From an uncultured Vicinamibacterales bacterium (lineage in GTDB: Bacteria; Acidobacteriota; Vicinamibacteria; Vicinamibacterales; UBA8438): a stretch of 64,000 nt of DNA. The notes under the pieces were generated by a model. It was not told where the DNA came from, did no database searches, and saw nothing but the letters and a program-made list of their open reading frames with translations. Location of the stretch: contig OY282382.1 in NCBI GenBank assembly GCA_958295905.1, positions 3,186,001 to 3,250,000 of the forward strand, written 5' to 3'. Position numbers and translations under genes: made by a program. Of the stretch, positions 288 to 62,313 are shown in pieces (within the stretch, counting starts at the first letter, position 1; every line of letters starts with the position of its first letter).

Positions 288-460
288 CAGGAGCATCCCA
301 CGCTGACGGCGCGTGACGGCCCGCCCCCGATTCGAGGGGTCGCCACCGTCTTGCCGACCGGCCGGCGCTGCGTGAGACCCACGATTCCGCCCGTCCGGAG
401 CCCCAGGACCCGCCACGATTCCGCCTGCGCACGGCGGTGGCGGAGCGTGGGACGGCCCTG
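288..460 (-). mobile_element. MITE-like element, copy A
   Basis: About 173 bp bounded by inverted ends that read CAGGAGCATCCCACGCT on the left and the complement of CAGGGCCGTCCCACGCT on the right. A perfect 10-bp direct repeat GTTTCCGCAA flanks it at 278-287 and 461-470, as expected of a target-site duplication. Six further copies occur in the window. It carries no gene. The DNA to its left (1-277) shows no gene or repeat that I recognise; the reading frames there look like chance GC-rich frames. Confidence 0.8.
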
Positions 461-479
461 GTTTCCGCAAGGCGCATCG

Positions 480-6505: not shown

Positions 6506-6672
6506 GCCCGCCCATCGTCGCCTGACGGCTCCGCTTGGCGCCCAACCAACCCTCCAGGAGTCCGCGCGGTTCTACGGCGCAGACTCCCGGCCCGCCCATC
6601 GTCGCCTGACGGCTCCGCTTGGCGCCCAACCAACCCGCAGGAGTCCGCGCGGTTCTACGGCGCAGACTCCTG
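6506..6672 (-). repeat. Two tandem 84-bp hairpin repeats
   Basis: Two near-identical units, about 6506-6588 and 6589-6672. Each has a CGTCGCCTGACGGCT segment, a GCGCCCAACCAACC segment and a hairpin whose arms are CAGGAGTC and GACTCCTG around GCGC/GCGC and a 9-nt loop. The same unit recurs at 7166, 32562, 33288, 40271, 45755, 50478 and 56688. Confidence 0.8.
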
Positions 6673-6797: not shown

Positions 6798-7145
6798 TCA
6801 CGGTGCTTCCGGCACGTAGATGATCTCGCCGCTCTCGAGCTGGTAAGCGATGCCTACCCGCCGGCCGCGGCGCCCCGCGGCATCGTCCACGTCTTCGGCC
6901 CGATAGCGGGTGATCTCGCCCGCCTCCTGGGTGATGATCTCCATCTCCGCCGTGCCCGGGTTCTTGACCATCGTGAAGTCCTCCTGCGTGAGGAACTCCG
7001 TCAACTGCCAGCGGCTGACCATCGCGACCATGAGCGCCACCGCGAAGACCATCGCGACGTCGAACAGGTTCGCGATGGCGCCGAGCGGGTCGCTGTCGTC
7101 GTGAAGCGAAGCGCCGATTCTACGCCGCCGTTTCCTTCCGGCCAT
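6798..7145 (-). CDS. DUF2149-type membrane protein (HmuV-like)
   Basis: A 115-residue protein. An in-frame extension upstream is only hairpin repeat, and GGAGG sits before the ATG at 7145, which fixes the start. It has a basic N-terminus (MAGRKRRRR), one membrane helix (about residues 27-47, AMVFAVALMVAMVS) and a short soluble part containing the YQLESGEIIYVPE tail. The length and layout match DUF2149 proteins, which sit at the end of hmu-type clusters after an ExbB/TolQ-like channel, as here. The likely role is an ExbD-like partner of the channel, which is an inference from topology and position. Two hairpin repeats separate it from the upstream gene. Confidence 0.7.
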   Translation of the reverse strand: MAGRKRRRRIGASLHDDSDPLGAIANLFDVAMVFAVALMVAMVSRWQLTEFLTQEDFTMVKNPGTAEMEIITQEAGEITRYRAEDVDDAAGRRGRRVGIAYQLESGEIIYVPEAP

Positions 7146-7165: not shown

Positions 7166-7333
7166 GCCCGCCAACCGTCGCCTGACGGCTGCGCTTGGCG
7201 CCCAACCAACCCTCCAGGAGTCCGCGCGGTTCTACGGCGCATACTCCTGGCTCGCCAATCGTCGCCTGACGGCTGCGCTTGGCGCCAACCAACCCTCCAG
7301 GAGTCCGCGCGGTTCTACGGCGCAGACTCCTGG
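7166..7333 (-). repeat. Two tandem hairpin repeats that overlap a gene end
   Basis: Units at about 7166-7249 and 7250-7333, the same family as at 6506. The right unit overlaps the last 19 bp of the ExbB-like gene: its hairpin strand CAGGAGTCTGCGCCGTAG is read in frame as Q-E-S-A-P-stop. Confidence 0.8.
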
Positions 7334-7926
7334 CCCGCCCGCTCGCCGACGAGTCCGCTCACGAACTCCAGATCGTTGAGCGCCTCGGTGTGCCAACGCT
7401 GTTTCGCCTGCTGGACGGCGAAGCCGATGCCGCCGACGAAGAGCCCCACGACCGTGGTCGAGAAGGCCACCTGCAGGTTCTCCGCCATCGCCGCGATGTC
7501 GCCGGCGGCCAGTCCGACGAGGGCCGGCCCCATCGGGATGAGGGTGCCCATCAGGCCGAGCATCGGGCCCAGCCGCGCCATGGTCCGCGCCGCCGCGAGA
7601 TCGGTCTCGCAGGCCGCCTCGAAGTCGGCGAGGACCTTCTCGCGGTGCGCGGCCGAGCCGCCGTGGTCGAGCAGGTGCGCGACCGCCGGCGTCCAGTGCG
7701 CCTCGGGTGGCAGGTCGGCGTCGCGGAGCAGCGCCTCCACGTTGCCGCGGTCGAGCCGGTCGAGCAGGGGCCGTAGCGCGGTTCGGAACCGGAGCCGCGA
7801 CAGCCACGCCCCGTAGGTGCGGCCGACGAGGAGCAGCGACCGACCGAAGAGGATGAGCAGCAGGACGATGACCGGCACGAGGAGGCCGGTCGAGAGCAGG
7901 TACAGGGTGCGTGTCAACAATTCCAT
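7315..7926 (-). CDS. MotA/TolQ/ExbB-type proton channel (HmuU-like)
   Basis: A 203-residue inner-membrane protein. It has an N-terminal helix (YLLSTGLLVPVIVLLLILFG), a cytoplasmic part, then the family hallmark GLMGTLIPMGPALVGLAAGD and a last pair of helices (STTVVGLFVGGIGFAVQ). In TonB and Tol systems such proteins form a proton channel with an ExbD/TolR partner. Here the partner may be the DUF2149 protein just downstream. The ATG at 7926 lies inside the end of the upstream gene (13-bp overlap), which suggests coupled translation. The last five codons and the stop (QESAP) come from a hairpin repeat, so the natural C-terminus has probably been replaced. Confidence 0.82.
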   Translation of the reverse strand: MELLTRTLYLLSTGLLVPVIVLLLILFGRSLLLVGRTYGAWLSRLRFRTALRPLLDRLDRGNVEALLRDADLPPEAHWTPAVAHLLDHGGSAAHREKVLADFEAACETDLAAARTMARLGPMLGLMGTLIPMGPALVGLAAGDIAAMAENLQVAFSTTVVGLFVGGIGFAVQQAKQRWHTEALNDLEFVSGLVGERAGQESAP

Positions 7927-8669: not shown

Positions 8670-11600
8670 TCAGGTCGTGCTCCGCCGCCAGCGCAGGACG
8701 AGCAGCGCGAGCACGAAGAGGCTCGTCGCGAGGGCCGCCCCCAGCCACGCCAGGCGCGCCGGCATCGGCGGGGCCGCCGCCGCGTCCGCCGGCCGCGGCT
8801 CCGCGTCCTGCTCGGCCAGGACCACGCTCGCCTCCGTCAGCTCCACGCTCGTCGTCAGGGCCTGCTGCAGCTCGCGCCGGTAGCTCGCCGCGAGGTCCGC
8901 CGGCGCCTGCTCGGCGATGAACGACGCCAGGGCCGCATTGTCGCAGACGAAGCCGCTGCAGCCCGCCTCGAACTCCTCCACCAGCCGGGTGTGCAGCTCC
9001 GCGAGCACCGCCACCTGCTGCGCCGTGGCGTCCCACAGGCCCTTGCGCACCGTCTCCAGCATCACCGCCGTCATCTCCTGCAGGGCATAGGGGTTCTCCC
9101 GCCGGAAGAAGTCCTCGACCCCGAGATCGTGGCGGTCGTCGACGTACACCTCGTACAGCTCGTTCCAGAGCGTGTCGTCGATGGCGGCCGGCTTCATCAC
9201 GTTCCACCCGTAGGTGTTGCGGAACGTCTCGGCGAAGTGCTCGGCCGACGAGGCCCCGCCCTCCTGCATCTCGCCGATGTAGGCGGGGTTCAGCAGCGTC
9301 GACCGCGCCTCGGTCCAGATCGTCTCCTCGAGGTCCGTCACCCGCGGCCGGTTCATGTTGCGGAAGTCGTTGAAGTAGGCGTCGGCGTCGCGTCCCGTGA
9401 CGTGGCGGACGGCCGCGCTCAGCCCGCCCATGAACTCGTAGACGTGGTCGAGGCTCAGCGCGCCCCAGGTGTGGCTCTGGAGCGGCTGCACGACGACCTC
9501 GGTGCCGGCGAGGGCCGCCTCGAAGACGCCCTCGGCGTAGAAGCTCCAGAGCTCGCCCTCGTCGTAGACGGCGCCCATGTTGCGCAGGTACTGGCCGGCG
9601 ACCTCGGCGTCCTCTTCCCAGCGGTCGCCGCGCTCGACCATCTCCATGATGGCGGTGCCGTAGTTGCCGTTCACGCCGCCGAAGACGCGCAGGGTCGAGT
9701 AGCGCCGCGCGTCGGCGGGGGAGAGGCCCCTGGCCATCATCACCTCCTCGGCGCGCACGCGCCCCTCCTGGACGAAGTTGGCGTGGGCCTCGGCGTCGCG
9801 CGCCTCGGCCGCCATGGCGACGGCGCGGTTGATGAGGGCGAGGCGCGAGGCGGCGAGGTCGCGGAGCTGGCCGGCGGTCTGGACGACGACATCGATGCGG
9901 GGCCGGCCGAGGTCGGCCGACGGCATCAGGCGCAGGTCGCCGACCCGCCCGCGCGGGTCCCAGACCGGCTCGACCCCGAGCAGGTAGAAGATCTGGCCGA
10001 TGGTGGCGCCCTCGGTGCCGATGAAGTCGGTCGGCCAGAGGGTGAAAGCGACCTTCCGGGGCCAGGCGTCGTGGCGCCGCCGGTGCTCGTCCAGGAGAGA
10101 CTCGGCCAGCCTGCGCCCCACCGTCCACGCCTCCCGGGACGGCGTTTGCTCGGCGTCGATCGAGAAGAGGTTGCGCCCGGTGGGGACGGCGTCGGGATTG
10201 ACGATGGGGTCGCCCCCGGGCGTGGGCTCGACATAGCCGCCGGCGAGGCCCCGCACCACGCTTTCAAGCTCGATCTCCGAGCTGTCGCGCAGGCCCTTCC
10301 GGTGCCGGTCTACGCCGGCGACGCCGGCCTTCAGCACGAGAAGCGGCGCCGCGAGCTTCGATTCCCCGTGAGCCTGCTCGAGGTCGGCCGGGGAGACGAG
10401 GTCGGACAGCACTGCCTCGACGCTCTCTCCGCCCGCCCGCCGCGCGTAGGTGCGCCGCGCGGGCTGCCGGTAGCGACGCTCGAAGAGCGCGGCGTCGTCG
10501 AGGACGTCGCTCTTCACCACCCCCTTGGCGATGTCGATGCCGGCGAGGCCGTAGGCGATCGGGTCGATCGCCATCAGCTCCGCCGTCCCGTGGATCTCCC
10601 CGTCGGAGAACGCCTTGCCCAGCGTGTAGAAGCCCTGCACGACCTTCGCCCCGTCGATCGTCTCGACGTGGTTGCTCAGGCGGAAGAAGTCGTCGTCCGA
10701 CCATGCCGCCTCGGGGTCGAGGCCGAGGTCCACGTGCAGGCCCATGTCCACGGCGAGGCGCCGTATGGTCCTGGCGTGCTCCGCCCTCACCGGGCCGTCG
10801 GCCGCGTTGCGGTAGCGGTCGAGCCGGTCGCGCAGCGGGCGCAGCCCCTCGTAGAGGCCGCCCTCCATGAAGGGCGGCGTGAGGTGGGTGACGGTGGCCG
10901 CGTAGGCGCGCCGCTTGGCGATGATGCCCTCGCCGACGTTGCTCATGATGTAGAGGTAGACGTGCGGGATCCCGCCGATGAGCGCGTCCGACCAGTCGAA
11001 CGACGAGAGCGCAATCTGCTTCCAGGGCCTGAACTCGAGGCTCCCGTGGGTGCCGAAGTGCATCACGGCGTCGGCCTCGAACGCGCGCCGGGTCCACAGG
11101 TACGACGCCACGTAGGGGTGCGGCGGCGCCTCCAGCGTCCCGTGCACGAGGCGGAACGTATCGTCGCCCACCCCCGGCAGCGGCTGCGGGAGGACGACCA
11201 CGTTGCCGAACTGGACGCGGGCGACCGCGATGGCGGCGTCGTCGCCGCCGCCGACCGTCATGTACTCCCCGGGGGCGGGCCCGTACGCCGCGGCCACCGC
11301 CTCCCGCATCGCCGGCTCGAGGTGCTCTTCGGTCCATTCCGCGTACCGGGCGGCGGGCACCAGGGCCGGGTCCCCCTCGGCCACGTACTCCTCGAACGCC
11401 CCGCGCGCGTACGGCCCGAGCACGGGCCCCCTCGCCTGGATGAGCTCCCAGAACTCGTCCTCGGTCTCGGGCAGGCCCTCGACCGTGTAGCCGGCGTCGC
11501 GCATGGTGCGCAACAGGTTCAAAAGGCTCGGCACCACCTCCATGTTGCTCGCGGTCATCGCGTTCTTGCCGGGGCCCTTGTAGTAGTAGATGGCCACCCG

Positions 11601-31963: not shown

Positions 31964-32002
31964 ACGCCGTGCCGGCCCGCCGACGCCGGGCCGGCACGGC
32001 GT
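31964..32002 (+). terminator. Strong hairpin after the ABC operon
   Basis: Perfect 16-bp arms, ACGCCGTGCCGGCCCG at 31964-31979 and its complement at 31987-32002, around a 7-nt loop. It starts 11 bp past the stop of the last permease gene. There is no T-tract. Confidence 0.5.
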
Positions 32003-32166
32003 CGGCGGCGCGAACCCCTCTTCGGCCAGGCCCCGGGTCCGCTCGCAAGCAGAAGCGTGCCGACCGGACTCGTTTCGTGCGGTCGAGTCGGGGCTTCAGG
32101 ATTGCGTCAGGAAACTTACGAGAATCTTCAGTTGCCGGGCGCTCCACGCCGTCACAGACTCGAACG

Positions 32167-32562
32167 TCAGTGACCTTCGCACCCTCTGCCAACTTCGTGC
32201 AGTTCGCCGGGAACACCCCGCCGAACGTGCCGACGGTCCTCACCAACCTCTGGGGTAGCTACCGCAACATCGGCGGGGGGCCGATGGAGATCGGCGGCGC
32301 GGTGCGGGTGGTCGGCGACCGTCAGGCCAACAACGCCAACACGATCGTCCTGAACGGCTACACGCGGGCCGACGCGTGGGTGGCGTGGGAGCGCGACCGC
32401 GTCCGGGTGACGTTGAACGTCGACAACCTGACCGACACCGCGTACGCTTCGTGGTCCGACGTGTTCTACCTGGGGCACACCGATCCGTCGTTCTTCTACG
32501 CCAACACGCTGATGCTCGGCGCCCCGAGGACGTACTCGATCATGCTCCAGACGCGGTTCTAG
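32167..32562 (+). pseudogene. C-terminal stub of a TonB-dependent receptor
   Basis: About 131 codons of barrel: TFAPSANFVQFAGNTPPNVP, LWGSYRNIGG, GAVRVVGDRQANNAN, TLNVDNLTDTAYASW and the end MLQTRF with a terminal Phe, as in siderophore receptors. The plug and the rest of the barrel are missing upstream, so it cannot form a receptor. The stop lies at the edge of the hairpin repeats. Together with the PepSY stub that follows, it is what remains of an iron-complex uptake pair. Confidence 0.8.
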
Positions 32563-32722
32563 GAGTCTGCGCAGCGCCGCGGACTCCTGTAGGGTTGCTT
32601 GGGTGCCAAGCAGGCCGAAGACGACGATTGGCGGGACAGGAGTCTGCGGCGTGGAGCGGCGCAGACTCCTGGAGGGTCGGTCGGGCGCCCACGGAGCCGA
32701 ACGCGACGATTGGCGGGCTGGA
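32562..32722 (+). repeat. Two hairpin repeats in inverted orientation
   Basis: Units at about 32562-32637 and 32638-32722, in the opposite orientation to those at 6506. Each has AGGAGTCTGCG ... GACTCCTG and GACGATTGGCGGG. They lie between the TonB stub and the PepSY stub. Confidence 0.75.
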
Positions 32723-38748: not shown

Positions 38749-38948
38749 GCGGTCTTACGGGGACTGTCCGCATGGTACACGACCCGGCCGGTTCGCCGCG
38801 GGCCGCGCCCGAGCCGGCCCCCCGCGTCCACGGCCGGAAACGCCGGCCGCGCTGATCCGGCGCCGCGCGCCTCCCGCGGCGCCGCGGTTCGCCGCGGGCC
38901 GCGCTTGCGCCCCGCGGCGCTCGAACGCTTGGACCGTCGGCCCGCCGC

Positions 38949-39120
38949 CAGGACCATCCCACGCTCCGCCACCGCCGTGCGCAGGCCGAATCGTGGCGGG
39001 TCCTGGGGCTCCGGACGTGCGGAATCGTGGGTTCCCGCGGCGCCGGCCGGTCGGCAAGACGGTGGCGACCCCTCGAATCGGGGGCGGGCCGTTACGCGCC
39101 GTCAGCGTGGGATGCTCCTC
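38949..39120 (+). mobile_element. MITE-like element, copy B
   Basis: A 172-bp copy with inverted ends CAGGACCATCCCACGCT and, inverted, AGGAGCATCCCACGCT, flanked by a perfect 9-bp direct repeat GCCCGCCGC (38940-38948 and 39121-39129). This is the cleanest copy for defining the ends. Confidence 0.85.
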
Positions 39121-39217: not shown

Positions 39218-40234
39218 ATGAGCCGTCTGTCTCTCGCCGGCGTGTCCGTGGCGCTCGCCGTGATGCTGGCGCCGGCCGCGGCCCCGGGCCAGTCGACCGG
39301 GGCGCCGTCCCCGCTCCGCACGCCCTGGGGCGACCCGGACCTGCAGGGCATCTGGAACAACGCCACCCTGACCCCGTTGCAGCGTCCCGTGGACCTGGCG
39401 GACCGGGCGTTTCTGACGGCGGAGGAGGCGGCCGGCCTCGCGCAGCAGACGGTGGAGCGGAACGCCGAGCTGCTGAGCGCCCCCGCCCGGCGCACCGAGG
39501 CGGGCGGCAACGTGGGGGCCTACAACAACTTCTGGATGGAACGGGGAACGTCGGTGGTGCCGACCATGCGGACTTCGATCATCGTCGATCCGGAGGACGG
39601 CCGGCTGCCGCCGCTGACCCCGGAGGCCGACCGGCGGATCAACTCGCCGGAAGCGCGCCGGCTCGCGGAGATGCGCGGCGGGCGGCGGCCGGTCGAGACG
39701 TGGGAGCAGCTCGATCTGGGAGACCGTTGCCTGTGGTACCGCGGCATTCCGTCGTTCCCGACCGGCTACAACAACAACTACCACATCGTGCAGACCCCCG
39801 GCATGGTGGCGATCCTGCAGGAGCACATCCACGACGTGCGCTTCGTTTCGCTGGACGGGCGCCCGCACGTGACGCAGAAGATCCGCCAGTACGCGGGAAG
39901 CTCGCGCGGCCGTTGGGAGGGGGACACCCTCGTGGTGGAGACGACCAACTTCAACGAGCACGCGTTTATCCGCAACTTCAACGGCAACCTCAGCACCGAC
40001 CTCCACGTCGTCGAGCGCTTCACCCGGCTCGGTCCCGACACCCTCGGCTACGAGTTCACGGTGAACGATCCGAACACCTGGACCCGTCCGTGGCGCGGCT
40101 CGCTGCCGATGTCGCGCATCGACGGGCCGATGTTCGAGTACGCCTGCCACGAGGGGAACTACGGCCTGACGAACATTCTCGCCGGGTCGCGCGCGGAGGA
40201 GATCGCGGCGGCGCGGCAGGAGTCCGCGCGATAG
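39218..40234 (+). CDS. Secreted protein of unknown function (paralogue 2 of 3)
   Basis: A 338-residue protein with a signal peptide (GVSVALAVMLAPAAAPGQS) and AGAGGAG before the ATG. It shares the family landmarks: WGDPDLQGIWNNATLTPLQR, MRTSIIVDPEDGRLPP, LGDRCLWYR, TGYNNNYHIVQ, VAILQEHIHDVRFVSLDGRP, WEGDTLVVETTNF and MFEYACHEGNYG. It is the most diverged of the three paralogues in this window. Its last codons (RQESAR-stop) look derived from a hairpin repeat, like the end of the ExbB-like gene. The enzymatic role is unknown. Confidence 0.83.
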   Translation: MSRLSLAGVSVALAVMLAPAAAPGQSTGAPSPLRTPWGDPDLQGIWNNATLTPLQRPVDLADRAFLTAEEAAGLAQQTVERNAELLSAPARRTEAGGNVGAYNNFWMERGTSVVPTMRTSIIVDPEDGRLPPLTPEADRRINSPEARRLAEMRGGRRPVETWEQLDLGDRCLWYRGIPSFPTGYNNNYHIVQTPGMVAILQEHIHDVRFVSLDGRPHVTQKIRQYAGSSRGRWEGDTLVVETTNFNEHAFIRNFNGNLSTDLHVVERFTRLGPDTLGYEFTVNDPNTWTRPWRGSLPMSRIDGPMFEYACHEGNYGLTNILAGSRAEEIAAARQESAR

Positions 40235-40270: not shown

Positions 40271-40488
40271 GCCCGGAAATCGTCGCCTGGCGGCTCCGAT
40301 TGCCGCCCGACCAACCGTCCCGGGGTCCGCGCCGTTCTACGGTGCAGACGCTTGGCCCGGAAATCGTCGCCTGGCGGCTCCGATTGCCGCCCGACCAACC
40401 GTCCCGGGGTCCGCGCCGTTCTACGGCGCAGACGCTTGGCCCGGAAATCGTCGCCCGACGGTGCCGATCGCCGCCCGCCCGACCGTTC
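40271..40488 (+). repeat. Tandem hairpin repeats, 84-bp period
   Basis: Two near-identical units (40271-40354 and 40355-40438) and a third, diverged one (from 40439) with the shared GCCCGGAAATCGTCGCC start and the GTTCTACGG(T/C)GCAGACGCTTGG end. They fill the gap between the genes at 39218 and 40585. Confidence 0.85.
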
Positions 40489-45085: not shown

Positions 45086-45592
45086 CGCTCGTGCGGGCGG
45101 CCCGCCCGGGCGACGCACGCCTTTGGGCGTTTGACGGGGCGGCGGTCGCCGTCAGGGACACGCAGGAGCGCCTCCTGAACCCTCGACCGGCGGGGGCCTC
45201 CGACTTCTCCGCACGGAATCGGTGAATCGTCCACGCCGCACGCCCCGGCTTGTCCCGTCCATTCGGTTGGCGGTGCCGGCGGTCCCCGCCGACCGGTGAT
45301 GCGGCCTCCCAGCGTGGCGCGGCGTCGATCCACGCCGGCGAGGTGGTCGATTCGGTGGTTGACCTGGGTCGAGGCGGCCGTTCGTCCGGCGCCGGAGGAG
45401 ATGACGATGGCGGGGGAGCCCACTGCGCCAAGTTCACGCGCGTCTACGCCGGCACGTTCTGAAACCCGTACAAGAGCGTGTCCGGGGTGGTAACCTGTCG
45501 GCGGGGAGTCTGCGCCGTGGAACGATTTAGGCGCGATTAGACCCCTGTATATAGTAGTTGTAGACCCCTTCAACCACACTATATGTGGGGGC

Positions 45593-45738
45593 CAAGACCA
45601 TCCCACGCTCCGCCACCGCCGTGCAACAGGCGGAATCGTGGCGGGTCCTGGGGCTCCGGACGGGCGGAATCGTGGGTCTCACGCGGCGCCGGCCGGTCGG
45701 CAAGACGGTGGCGACCCCTCGAATCGGGGGCGGGCCGT
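45593..45738 (+). mobile_element. MITE-like element, copy C, right end missing
   Basis: The left end AAGACCATCCCACGCT and the body match the family, but the last 30 or so bp with the right inverted end are absent. Even so, the remaining copy is flanked by a 9-bp direct repeat TGTGGGGGC (45584-45592 and 45739-45747). Apart from this element and the hairpin repeat after it, the interval 45086-45876 has no gene that I can support. Confidence 0.65.
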
Positions 45739-51617: not shown

Positions 51618-51762
51618 GGTGATCTCCGATGGTTGCCTTGGATACTTCGCGCAAGGCCGCCGAGGTACCGGTCGGTTCCCCGGCGGCGCGTTCGAATCCG
51701 GTCTTCCGGTGCCGATCCTATCGCCGGACGCCCCGGCGTTTCAACGCTTCCGGCCCGGTGAG

Positions 51763-51933
51763 CAGGACCACCCCACGCTCCACCACCGCCGTGCGCAGGC
51801 CGAATCGTGGCGGGTCCTGGGGCTCCGGACGGGCGGCGTCGTGGGTCTCACGCGGTGCCGGCGGCGGCAAGACGGTGGCGACCCCTCGAATCGGGAGCAA
51901 GTCGTCACGCGCAGTCAGCGTGGGATGGCCCTG
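51763..51933 (+). mobile_element. MITE-like element, copy D (tandem with E)
   Basis: A copy with ends CAGGACCACCCCACGCT and, inverted, CAGGGCCATCCCACGCT. Flanks are CCCGGTGAG on the left and CCCGGTGCG on the right, a 9-bp duplication with one mismatch. The right flank is also the left flank of copy E. Confidence 0.8.
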
Positions 51934-51942
51934 CCCGGTGCG

Positions 51943-52113
51943 CAGGACCATCCCATGCTCCACCACCGCCGTGCGCAGGCCGAATCGTGGCGGGTCCTGG
52001 GGCTCCGACGGGCGGCGTCGTGGGTCTCACGCGGTGCCGGCGGGTCGGCAAGACGGTGGCGACCCCTCGAATCGGGAGCAAGTCGTCACGCGCAGTCAGC
52101 GTGGGATGCTCCT
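51943..52113 (+). mobile_element. MITE-like element, copy E (tandem with D)
   Basis: The second of two direct copies, almost identical to copy D (shared GGGAGCAAGTCGTCACGCGCAGTCAGCG-type right half). The left flank CCCGGTGCG is shared with D; the right flank CCCGGGTTA has only partial similarity. The pair probably arose by duplication of one inserted copy. Confidence 0.8.
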
Positions 52114-52125
52114 GCCCGGGTTAAG

Positions 52126-52489: not shown

Positions 52490-53017
52490 TTTGCTGTGAA
52501 ACGCTCCCATGGCCCGGGCACACGACGGGCGTGACCGCGGATCGATGATCGAGCGGCCTTCAGACCGGAGACGTGAGGTTCCCGGATTTCGTGGGCGGTG
52601 CGGGGCAGCCCCGATCTATGGCCCGACACGGCGCCCCGGGTCCGGGGGCGCCGTGTTCAGGGGCGGGCGGCTGCCTGCAACCGTGTCGCTGTTCATCAGG
52701 TATCCTCCTTGGAGGCGGAAGCGGGAGGGCGCGCCCGGTGCAGGAAACACCCGCCTCAGCGGCGGGGTTCGATTTGCTGCTCGTCCACGGCCCGCCGGGC
52801 CGGGTACGATTCGGGGCTCGATGCCGGGCGCGCGGCGTCAGTTTGTTAACGGGGACGGGATGATTCCCTCCACCGAAAAATGCTGCGACGACTGTTCCGC
52901 TTCCGCCCCTTGAGGATGGCACGATCCGCCGCCGCCGGCTGGAGGTCCAACGGCTCCGCGGACAGAAACCGCCCGCGTTTCATGCGGTCGGGGTGAGGGG
53001 CACGCCCCTCATGAGGG
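52490..53017. mobile_element. IS110-like relic unit 1 (gene almost fully deleted)
   Basis: A 528-bp unit that begins at TTTG and ends before the next TTTG (53018). It is the same as unit 2 except for a 275-bp gap between 52679 and 52680, where unit 2 has the transposase fragment (53208-53482). What is left is the two flanking non-coding parts, about 190 bp and 340 bp. Confidence 0.7.
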
Positions 53018-53820
53018 TTTGCTGTGAAACGCTCCCATGGCCCGGGCACACGACGGGCGTGACCGCGGATCGATGATCGAGCGGCCTTCAGACCGGAGAC
53101 GTGAGGTTCCCGGATTTCGTGGGCGGTGCGGGGCAGCCCCGATCTATGGCCCGACACGGCGCCCCGGGTCCGGGGGCGCCGTGTTCAGGGGCGGGCGGCT
53201 GCCTGCACCTCGTTGATGAATCCGTACTGCCCGAGCATGCGGAGCCAACGCGGTGCGTTGCGCTCGACGAGGAGCCGTCGGTAGTCGATGCCGGGGTCGG
53301 TGTAGGGCCGGGTCCGCAGACCGTCCGGCAGCGCGCTGAACTCCCGCACGGCGGTACGGGCCGGCCCGCCGCCGGCCTCGCAGAGGCGCACCGCGGCGGT
53401 GACGTGCATCTTGTGCACATCGAGTCCGGCCGCCCGCGGGTGCGCCACGTGCATGTCGTCGATGCGCAACATGTCGGCATCAACCGTGTCGCTGTTCATC
53501 AGGTATCCTCCTTGGAGGCGGAAGCGGGAGGGCGCGCCCGGTGCAGGAAACACCCGCCTCAGCGGCGGGGTTCGATTTGCTGCTCGTCCACGGCCCGCCG
53601 GGCCGGGTACGATTCGGGGCTCGATGCCGGGCGCGCGGCGTCAGTTTGTTAACGGGGACGGGATGATTCCCTCCACCGAAAAATGCTGCGACGACTGTTC
53701 CGCTTCCGCCCCTTGAGGATGGCACGATCCGCCGCCGCCGGCTGGAGGTCCAACGGCTCCGCGGACAGAAACCGCCCGCGTTTCATGCGGTCGGGGTGAG
53801 GGGCACGCCCCTCATGAGGG
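53018..53820. mobile_element. IS110-like relic unit 2
   Basis: An 803-bp direct repeat of unit 1 with an additional 275 bp. Its left, middle and right junctions each show TTTG (52490, 53018, 53821), so each unit is TTTG plus body. A short shared core at each junction is what site-specific IS110-type insertion would leave. The non-coding part to the right of the start codon (53500-53820) is well conserved between units and rich in hairpins. Confidence 0.65.
53185..53499 (-). pseudogene. Internally deleted IS110-family transposase
   Basis: About 104 codons from the ATG at 53499. AAGLDVHKMHVTAAVRLCEA is the N-terminal catalytic (DEDD-type) start of IS110 transposases. It then jumps to DYRRLLVERNAPRWLRMLGQ, which looks like the C-terminal part, so some 250 codons are missing. 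A ribosome site (AAGGAGGAT on the - strand) precedes the start. It is not functional as a recombinase. Confidence 0.7.
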
Positions 53821-56337: not shown

Positions 56338-56399
56338 GTCGAGCGGCGGAGACGCACGGACGCCCTCGCCGGGCCCGCCGCGCGGGCGTCTTGCCGCCC

Positions 56400-56573
56400 C
56401 AAGACCATCCCGCGCTCCGCCACCGCCGTGGGCAGGCGGAATCGTGGCGGGTCCTGGGGCTCCGGATGTGCGGAATCGTGGGTCCCGCGCGGCGCCGGCC
56501 GGTCGGCAAGACGGTGGCGACCCCTCGAATCGGGGGCGAGCCGTCACGCGCAGTCAGCGTGGGATGCCCCTGC
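56400..56573 (+). mobile_element. MITE-like element, copy F
   Basis: Ends CAAGACCATCCCGCGCT and, inverted, CAGGGGCATCCCACGCT, flanked by TTGCCGCCC on both sides (56391-56399 and 56575-56583), with two extra bases between the right end and the right repeat. Confidence 0.78.
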
Positions 56574-61923: not shown

Positions 61924-62047
61924 GTCCCATCGTAACCGGAAGCGTGCGCAGCGGCGTCCCCGCCGCCGCCCGCCGGCCGGAACGGGCGGCGCCTCGAGCG
62001 GATTCCTGCGGCGATCTCCCGGCCAAGTCACCACGTCACCCCGCCGC

Positions 62048-62292
62048 AGGACCATCCCACGCTCCGCCACCGCCGTGCGCAGGCGGCATCGTGGCGGGTC
62101 CTGAGGCTCCGACCGTGCGGAAATCGTGGGTCTCACGCGGCGCCGGGCGGTCGGCAAGACGGTGGCGACCCGCGCCCGGGGCGCGGACGCTGCCGTCGCG
62201 GGTGAGCGCACGCGGTGCCGGCCGGTCGGCAAGACGGTGGCGACCCCTCGAACCGGGGGCGGGCCGTCACGCGCCGTCAGCGTGGGATGCCC
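62048..62292 (+). mobile_element. MITE-like element, copy G, internally expanded
   Basis: Ends CAGGACCATCCCACGCT and, inverted, CAGGGGCATCCCACGCT. Flanked by CCCCGCCG on both sides. It is about 75 bp longer than the other copies because the segment CCGG(G/C)CGGTCGGCAAGACG and its surroundings are present twice (about 62140-62170 and 62215-62246). Confidence 0.75.
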
Positions 62293-62313
62293 CTGCCCCC
62301 GCCGGCGGGGTGG

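What the first reader, a model, noticed from the sequence alone, without database searches (positions are those of the whole stretch)
7166..7333. Hairpin repeats that write gene ends: Q-E-S-A-P-stop
The 84-bp hairpin repeat overlaps the 3' end of the ExbB-like gene and supplies its last codons and stop (CAGGAGTCTGCGCCGTAG). The paralogue gene at 39218 ends RQESAR-stop with a similar string, and the TonB stub at 32562 ends at the repeat edge. The repeats seem to insert at or near stop codons and recode the C-terminus, a tolerated form of gene editing by repeats.
Basis: partly seen in the sequence, partly recalled or inferred. Interest (0 to 1): 0.65.

Follow-up and report, generated by a model that had tools for sequence, protein, structure and literature searches.

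The report
Hairpin repeats sitting on stop codons
A short hairpin repeat, scattered through the genomes of these uncultured Acidobacteria, sits exactly on the stop codons of many genes and often replaces them with a spare stop five codons further on, so that unrelated proteins end in nearly the same five amino acids.

Summary
A 35-bp palindrome inside an 84-bp unit occurs 155 times in this genome. In 61 own stretches (143 hairpins), gene stops fall exactly on the hairpin's left edge (TAG|GAGTC, 10), in its loop 15 nt on (…ESAP-TAG, 16) or on the far linker edge (3); shifted controls average 0.1-0.2. Eighty loci from nine other MAGs repeat this: 33, 10 and 12 among 107 hairpins. The exbB-like gene is one of the 16.

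Of 17 genes with repeat-coded tails, 14 have a hairpin-free orthologue; in 11 these stop within two codons of the hairpin start. So the usual effect is a short added tail, not a truncation. The exbB-like gene is an exception: it once overlapped its neighbour.

Best explanation: a MITE-like palindromic element inserts at CTAG. CTAG is about 13-fold depleted here, and 37-44% of the sites outside coding interiors are gene stops. The element's end regenerates TAG, and its loop carries an in-frame spare stop. The mobilising enzyme is unknown; no REP-type (Y1) transposase was found. The closest precedent in print is GTAG REPs supplying TAG stops (PMC3733652).

The parts
7315..7926 (-). exbB-like gene (MotA/TolQ/ExbB family), 203 aa, ends ...GERAG|QESAP-TAG
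   Evidence: PF01618, E 4.5e-11
7315..7332 (-). repeat-supplied codons CAG GAG TCT GCG CCG TAG (QESAP-stop); TAG at 7317-7315 is in the hairpin loop
7298..7332 (-). 35-bp hairpin, first unit (R orientation relative to the gene)
7215..7249 (-). 35-bp hairpin, second unit of the same array
7166..7332 (-). array of two 84-bp units (hairpin plus linker) between the exbB-like and DUF2149 genes
6798..7145 (-). DUF2149 gene downstream; in six homologous loci of related genera with both genes read, the exbB-like gene overlaps its start by 47 nt
   Evidence: PF09919, E 3.4e-30
6506..6672 (-). second two-unit array of the same family (hairpins 6555-6589 and 6638-6672)
31969..32562 (+). TonB-dependent receptor C-terminal fragment; its stop TAG 32560-32562 is the left edge of a shortened hairpin
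   Evidence: TIGR01783, E 2.4e-15, under its curated cut-off
32560..32589 (+). shortened hairpin TAGGAGTCTGCGCAGCGCCGCGGACTCCTG
   Evidence: sequence
32637..32671 (+). 35-bp hairpin of the family downstream of the TonB fragment
40217..40234 (+). QESAR-TAG end of gene 39218-40234; resembles left arm and loop of a decayed hairpin
   Evidence: inference
40271..40438 (-). two-unit array downstream of 40234

Best explanation
The repeat is a small non-autonomous palindromic mobile element that inserts at CTAG (or the TA within it). Its outer bases complete CTAG again at both ends, so an insertion into a stop codon NNC-TAG leaves TAG in place. CTAG is strongly depleted in these GC-rich genomes and much of what remains is at stop codons. 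Insertions that survive are therefore found on stop codons without any special recognition of gene ends. In the favoured orientation a second TAG lies in the hairpin loop, 15 nt on and in the same frame, while the other reading frames and the other orientation run open through the unit. When the edge TAG mutates (CAG, CGG), the loop TAG catches the ribosome and the protein gains (Q/R)ESAP. Shown: positions, frames, orientation bias, orthologue ends, CTAG bookkeeping. Inferred: the mutation order TAG to CAG, movement by a DDE/IS630-type enzyme acting in trans, and selection against frames without a near stop.
For: Stops at R edge, R loop and F linker edge: 10, 16 and 3 among 143 own hairpins, 33, 10 and 12 among 107 hairpins in 80 loci of nine other MAGs; 2000 shifted controls average 0.07-0.23. 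Of genes reading past the hairpin start, 16 of 21 (own) and 10 of 20 (others) stop at the loop in one phase and orientation. Orthologues: 11 of 14 hairpin-free cases stop within two codons of the hairpin start. Right end of the element is ..CCGGG|CTAG in 17 of 81, CTGG 14, CCAG 8, CCGG 7; the left 4-mer at gene stops is CTAG in 27 of 43, but where no gene ends at the hairpin mostly CCAG/CCGG. CTAG: 247 seen, 3265 expected; 37% (own) and 44% (others) of those outside coding interiors are gene stops. Filled against empty site with CTAG relics on both sides: L062 against L127. Longer relatives with the same GGAGTCTGCGCCG ends sit between CTAGs. Three IS630-family copies are in the genome; in the copy compared at both ends CTAG flanks it, and it is bracketed by two such relatives.
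Against: No transposase with the hairpin's own ends was found; the IS630 copies end in TGGTCCGTCA, not GGAGTCTGCGCCG. The palindrome is not repeated at the far end of the 84-bp unit, so the unit is not a plain terminal-inverted-repeat MITE. A G precedes TAG at 12 of 43 gene edges, so CTAG is not absolute. A 1:1 orientation is expected from a palindromic target, yet R exceeds F 69 to 15 at exact stops and 43 to 15 with the edge stop intact; only selection or an unknown bias explains that. Most intergenic flanks are too diverged to show the target duplication cleanly. The exbB-like junction itself shows no CTAG relic.
Confidence: 0.72

Rival explanations
1. The repeats are REP elements of the GTAG type, moved by a RAYT (Y1 tyrosine transposase) whose target tetranucleotide brings the TAG.
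For: 35-bp palindrome, high copy, TAG at one foot, mostly near gene 3' ends; GTAG REP termini are reported to provide TAG stops often (PMC3733652, section 15).
Against: No PF01797 match in the eight hairpin-bearing genomes that were searched (G000-G003, G010, G012, G014, G017); family members that have one (G005, G006, G009, G015, G016) have no hairpins. The foot is CTAG more often than GTAG (27 against 12 of 43), and CTAG lies on both sides.
Confidence: 0.12
2. The hairpin has been kept as a functional 3'-end module (RNA protection, ribosome pausing or insulation), and its place on the stop codon with a spare stop is selected.
For: Strong bias towards one orientation at stops (69 to 15); stems kept through substitutions, and one linker pair is G-C in 87 and C-G in 55 of 169 units; one or both congeners keep diverged hairpins at the same stops in L053, L059_17430, L070, L071, L086. 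REPs within 15 nt of a stop stall ribosomes in E. coli according to work cited in PMC12306157 (passages read).
Against: Most sites are empty in one or both congeners; the copies not on stops decay at their edges; no expression data.
Confidence: 0.2
3. Random insertion near gene ends followed only by selection: truncating insertions survive only when orientation and frame give an immediate stop.
For: Only one of six orientation-frame combinations ends translation at once; loop-stop genes are nearly all in it. It fits the exbB-like gene and L049, where the old tail was lost.
Against: Random insertion would truncate by varying lengths. Instead 11 of 14 hairpin-free orthologues end within two codons of the hairpin start, and edge stops coincide to the base.
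Confidence: 0.1
4. Chance or gene-calling artefact.
For: Genes were called with a home-made codon model, not a standard gene finder.
Against: Shifted controls give 0.07-0.23; the genes include rpoA, dnaA, dapF and recJ-like genes; replicated in 80 loci of other MAGs.
Confidence: 0.01

Closest known systems
GTAG REP elements (Di Nocera et al. 2013, PMC3733652; passages and section 15 read)
   Same: Short high-copy palindromes near gene 3' ends whose termini often give TAG stops to flanking ORFs; some lie at ORF ends and add residues.
   Different: Foot is mostly CTAG on both sides of an 84-bp unit; no RAYT found; second in-frame TAG in the loop giving a repeated ESAP tail; exact one-codon registration tested here against orthologues.
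IS630/Tc1-mariner MITEs such as RUP (PMC2229807 passages; ISY100 in PMC2170065 passages)
   Same: Small element with inverted-repeat ends and a TA-containing target; IS630 copies with CTAG junctions are in this genome.
   Different: The IS630 found here has other ends, so no autonomous partner is shown; the hairpin is at one end of the unit only.
RU-1 in enterobacteria (Delihas 2007, PMC2759123; passages)
   Same: Single cases in which a mobile repeat removes the normal stop of a gene and extends the protein.
   Different: There the repeat codes for longer tails in a few genes; here a five-residue tail recurs in many genes because of a spare stop.
MIRUs of mycobacteria (recalled only; no paper read)
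   Same: Small repeats inserted at overlapping stop/start junctions of operons, as at the exbB-like/DUF2149 junction.
   Different: Recalled target is DTGA, not CTAG; not tested here.

Membership tests
GTAG REP (RAYT-associated) | 20-40 bp palindrome in high copy | tested here: met
   35 bp; 155 per strand in own genome, 0 for the reversed control
GTAG REP (RAYT-associated) | GTAG tetranucleotide at one end | tested here: not met
   At gene-stop left edges: CTAG 27, GTAG 12, other 4 of 43; elsewhere mostly CCAG/CCGG
GTAG REP (RAYT-associated) | RAYT (Y1 transposase) in the genome | tested here: not met
   PF01797: 0 matches in G000, G001, G002 and five more hairpin-bearing genomes
GTAG REP (RAYT-associated) | termini supply TAG stops to flanking ORFs | tested here: met
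   10 of 143 and 33 of 107 hairpins
MITE of IS630/Tc1 type | short, non-coding, inverted-repeat ends | tested here: inconclusive
   The hairpin is an inverted repeat and longer relatives have GGAGTCTGCGCCG at both ends; the 84-bp unit as a whole does not
MITE of IS630/Tc1 type | TA (CTAG) target with duplication | tested here: inconclusive
   CTAG-like 4-mers on both sides; one clear filled/empty pair, L062 against L127
MITE of IS630/Tc1 type | autonomous partner with the same ends | tested here: not met
   Three IS630 copies found; the ends compared are TGGTCCGTCA; other DDE transposase families not searched
Known RNA family | Rfam match | tested here: not met
   0 matches at gathering scores in the window
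MIRU | DTGA insertion sites in operons | not tested
   recalled; no paper read

The most novel reading that the evidence does not exclude
A mobile element family whose design makes insertion into stop codons nearly harmless: both ends rebuild TAG, the favoured orientation carries an in-frame spare stop, and its target word is concentrated at stop codons. It has thereby become a common C-terminus maker, tagging unrelated housekeeping proteins (RpoA, DnaA, DapF, RecJ-like) with a shared five-residue tail that may be kept for a function.
Probability: 0.25. Interest if true: 0.75.

Novelty: new variant of a known kind. Interest (0 to 1): 0.55.

Why it matters
It shows how a mobile element can live in a gene-dense genome by landing on a word, CTAG, that is rare and largely at stop codons, and by carrying a spare stop. 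It also gives a clean natural test of what short C-terminal tails, stop-codon change and 3' hairpins do: the same tail sits on many unrelated genes, with tail-free orthologues in close relatives. The same junction can also uncouple overlapping genes, as at the exbB-like/DUF2149 pair.

Tried and rejected
REP/RAYT origin: tested with PF01797 and not supported. IS630 copies as the direct parent: the ends compared differ, so only the shared target is claimed. The pair of AT-rich relatives at 1425-1427 kb looked like the two ends of an autonomous copy; the ORFs listed between them did not read to me as a transposase, and no family search was run on them. Rfam gave no match. The orthologue search for the TonB fragment found nothing in the two congeners, so its end could not be compared. 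Target duplications could not be read in most orthologue pairs because intergenic sequence is too diverged. Integron attC sites were considered from memory (hairpins after stop codons) and put aside without a test, because the elements stand singly between unrelated housekeeping genes.

Limits. The 60 own stretches were chosen around listed copies, not at random, and do not cover every listed copy. Genes were called by a home-made codon-usage model. The 80 loci may include genomes close to or the same as G001/G002. Orientation was first assigned by the loop and later by the linker; counts differ by a few, and the report uses. Tail pieces of 29 genes were available; 27 were searched (L093_8320 and the exbB-like gene left out; the latter had been searched); for L057 no usable piece was made, and L073 gave no orthologue.

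Literature: searches. Read as passages: PMC2759123, PMC2170065, PMC3189936, PMC2229807, PMC12306157, PMC1590033. PMC3733652: passages and section 15. The rest only as listings. The MIRU work is recalled.

Full report
What was checked. The window lies at 3186001-3250000 of contig C1 of a 6.3-Mb genome. The exbB-like gene on the minus strand (7926-7315) ends …GERAG-QESAP-TAG. The last six codons are the left arm and loop of a 35-bp palindrome, 7298-7332, the first hairpin of a two-unit array 7166-7332. The downstream gene is a DUF2149 gene.

The repeat is a large family. The palindrome pattern matches 155 times per strand in the genome with 0 matches for the reversed control. It occurs in 13 of 60 relatives searched, the own genome included, all in one family (genera g1, g2, g6, g9), with 0 in the 32 genomes of other families. 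A scan of named genomes hit MAGs titled Acidobacteria, Vicinamibacteria or Vicinamibacteraceae, and one Gemmatimonadetes contig. The consensus unit is a 35-bp hairpin plus a G-rich linker of about 48 bp.

Position relative to genes. I took 60 stretches around listed copies plus the window (1.2 Mb), called genes by codon usage and found 143 hairpins with at most six mismatches; the reversed control gave 0. Orientation R means the hairpin reads CAGGAGTCTGCGCCGTAGAAC… along the gene. Stops fall at the left edge in R (TAG|GAGTC) in 10, in the loop in R (offset 15) in 16, and at the far linker edge in the other orientation in 3; the means over 2000 shifted controls are 0.14, 0.12 and 0.23. Edge and loop are in the same frame. 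Of genes that read past the hairpin start, 16 of 21 end at the loop in that one frame and orientation.

Replication. In 80 loci from nine MAGs (572 kb, 107 hairpins) the counts are 33, 10 and 12 against 0.07, 0.12 and 0.16. This sample was conditioned on the loop form T-N-G, but not on the edge.

The 16 loop-ended own genes include dnaA, dapF, a recJ-like gene, a prolyl oligopeptidase-like gene and a formyltransferase-like gene; rpoA ends 18 nt beyond the loop stop position, at the far edge of the hairpin. Seventeen genes thus have repeat-coded tails. Fourteen have at least one congener orthologue without a hairpin there. In eleven (L041, L042, dnaA, L048, L051, L055, L059, L071, L078, L083, rpoA) that orthologue stops within two codons of the hairpin start, in eight of them (L041, L042, L055, L059, L071, L078, L083, rpoA) exactly there in at least one congener. 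For dnaA the offset is +1 by length, from an indel upstream as I read it, and its orthologues are only 55-57% identical, so it is absent from the table. Three run longer: L039 (+6, EASPAP*, perhaps a relic), L049 (+16) and the exbB-like gene (+5 to +22). In L049 and the exbB-like gene the ancestral tail overlapped the next gene. Three more (L070, L082, L086_8622) have relics of the hairpin in both congeners, as read from the sequences. Of the eleven edge-ended genes (the ten above plus L062, offset 1), ten have orthologues, which end at offset 0 or +1 except one of the three for L035 at +7.

The exbB junction. In six loci of genera g2, g4, g6 and g9 with both genes read, the exbB-like gene overlaps the DUF2149 start by 47 nt; a seventh with the same tail lacks the neighbour match. 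In two genomes of g2 a 67-68-nt spacer is present. In the two congeners a different tandem array of about 78 bp stands at the same junction and gives another end (…SARA*). In this genome the hairpin array stands there and gives QESAP*. The junction was thus broken up in more than one way.

Ends and target. The right end of the unit reads CCGGG|CTAG (17 of 81), CTGG (14), CCAG (8) or CCGG (7). The left 4-mer is CTAG in 27 of 43 gene-edge cases and GTAG in 12; where no gene ends there it is mostly CCAG or CCGG. I read this as a CTAG target that decays by transitions unless a gene needs the TAG. CTAG is depleted, 247 seen against 3265 expected, and of the CTAGs outside coding interiors and away from hairpins 56 of 151 (own) and 29 of 66 (others) are gene stops. 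That is the size of the observed concentration, so no special recognition of stop codons is needed. The excess of orientation R at exact stops (69 to 15; 43 to 15 with the edge stop intact) is not explained by the target and fits selection for the spare stop, or an unknown bias.

Mobility. No Y1 transposase was found in the eight hairpin-bearing genomes that were searched. Three IS630-family copies are present in the own genome; in the copy compared at both ends CTAG flanks it, and it is bracketed by two AT-rich relatives of the hairpin with GGAGTCTGCGCCG ends. The IS ends differ from the hairpin ends, so IS630 is a lead, not a result. That IS630-type elements duplicate TA is from PMC2170065 (passages).

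What is known. [quoted passage not shown] PMC2759123 describes a repeat that removed a normal stop and extended a protein. I found no paper that reports this family, the spare in-frame loop stop, or the recurring ESAP tail; the library lacks most subscription journals.

Verdict. It is best filed as a new variant of a known kind.

Noticed in passing
window 39218-40234: Member of a very large protein family: 113 and 114 matches in the two congener genomes, yet no Pfam (E 0.001) or NCBIfam (E 0.01) match.
   Followed up: partly
window 288-461, 38936-39119, 45581-45738, 51750-52114, 56387-56572, 62034-62295: Another interspersed repeat family (D1/D3). In L092 about 9240-9570 it lies inside a longer element with the same GGAGTCTGCGCCG ends.
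   Followed up: partly
L047 about 9383-9500: AT-rich element of about 120 bp with GGAGTCTGCGCCG inverted ends between CTAGs; 309 first-look candidates in the genome, 45 matches listed.
   Followed up: partly
L263, L264, L265 (C1 about 1746.9, 1752.7 and 1880.2 kb): Three near-identical IS630-family copies; the one at 1746.9 kb is bracketed by two hairpin-family relatives that share its CTAG junctions.
   Followed up: partly
L002 and L003, exbB-like/DUF2149 junction: Congeners carry a different tandem array of about 78 bp at this junction, whose unit seems to include a copy of the exbB-like gene's tail.
   Followed up: no
linker of every unit, e.g. window 7250-7297: G-rich stretch GGAGGGTTGGTTGGGCGG (minus strand) next to a small stem; one stem pair is G-C in 87 and C-G in 55 of 169 units. 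Could form a G-quadruplex; not tested.
   Followed up: no
window 52490-53780: Perfect direct repeats of 300 and 190 nt, spaced 803 and 528 nt (D4, D12).
   Followed up: no
whole sampled genome: CTAG is about 13-fold under-represented (247 against 3265 expected); cause not examined.
   Followed up: no
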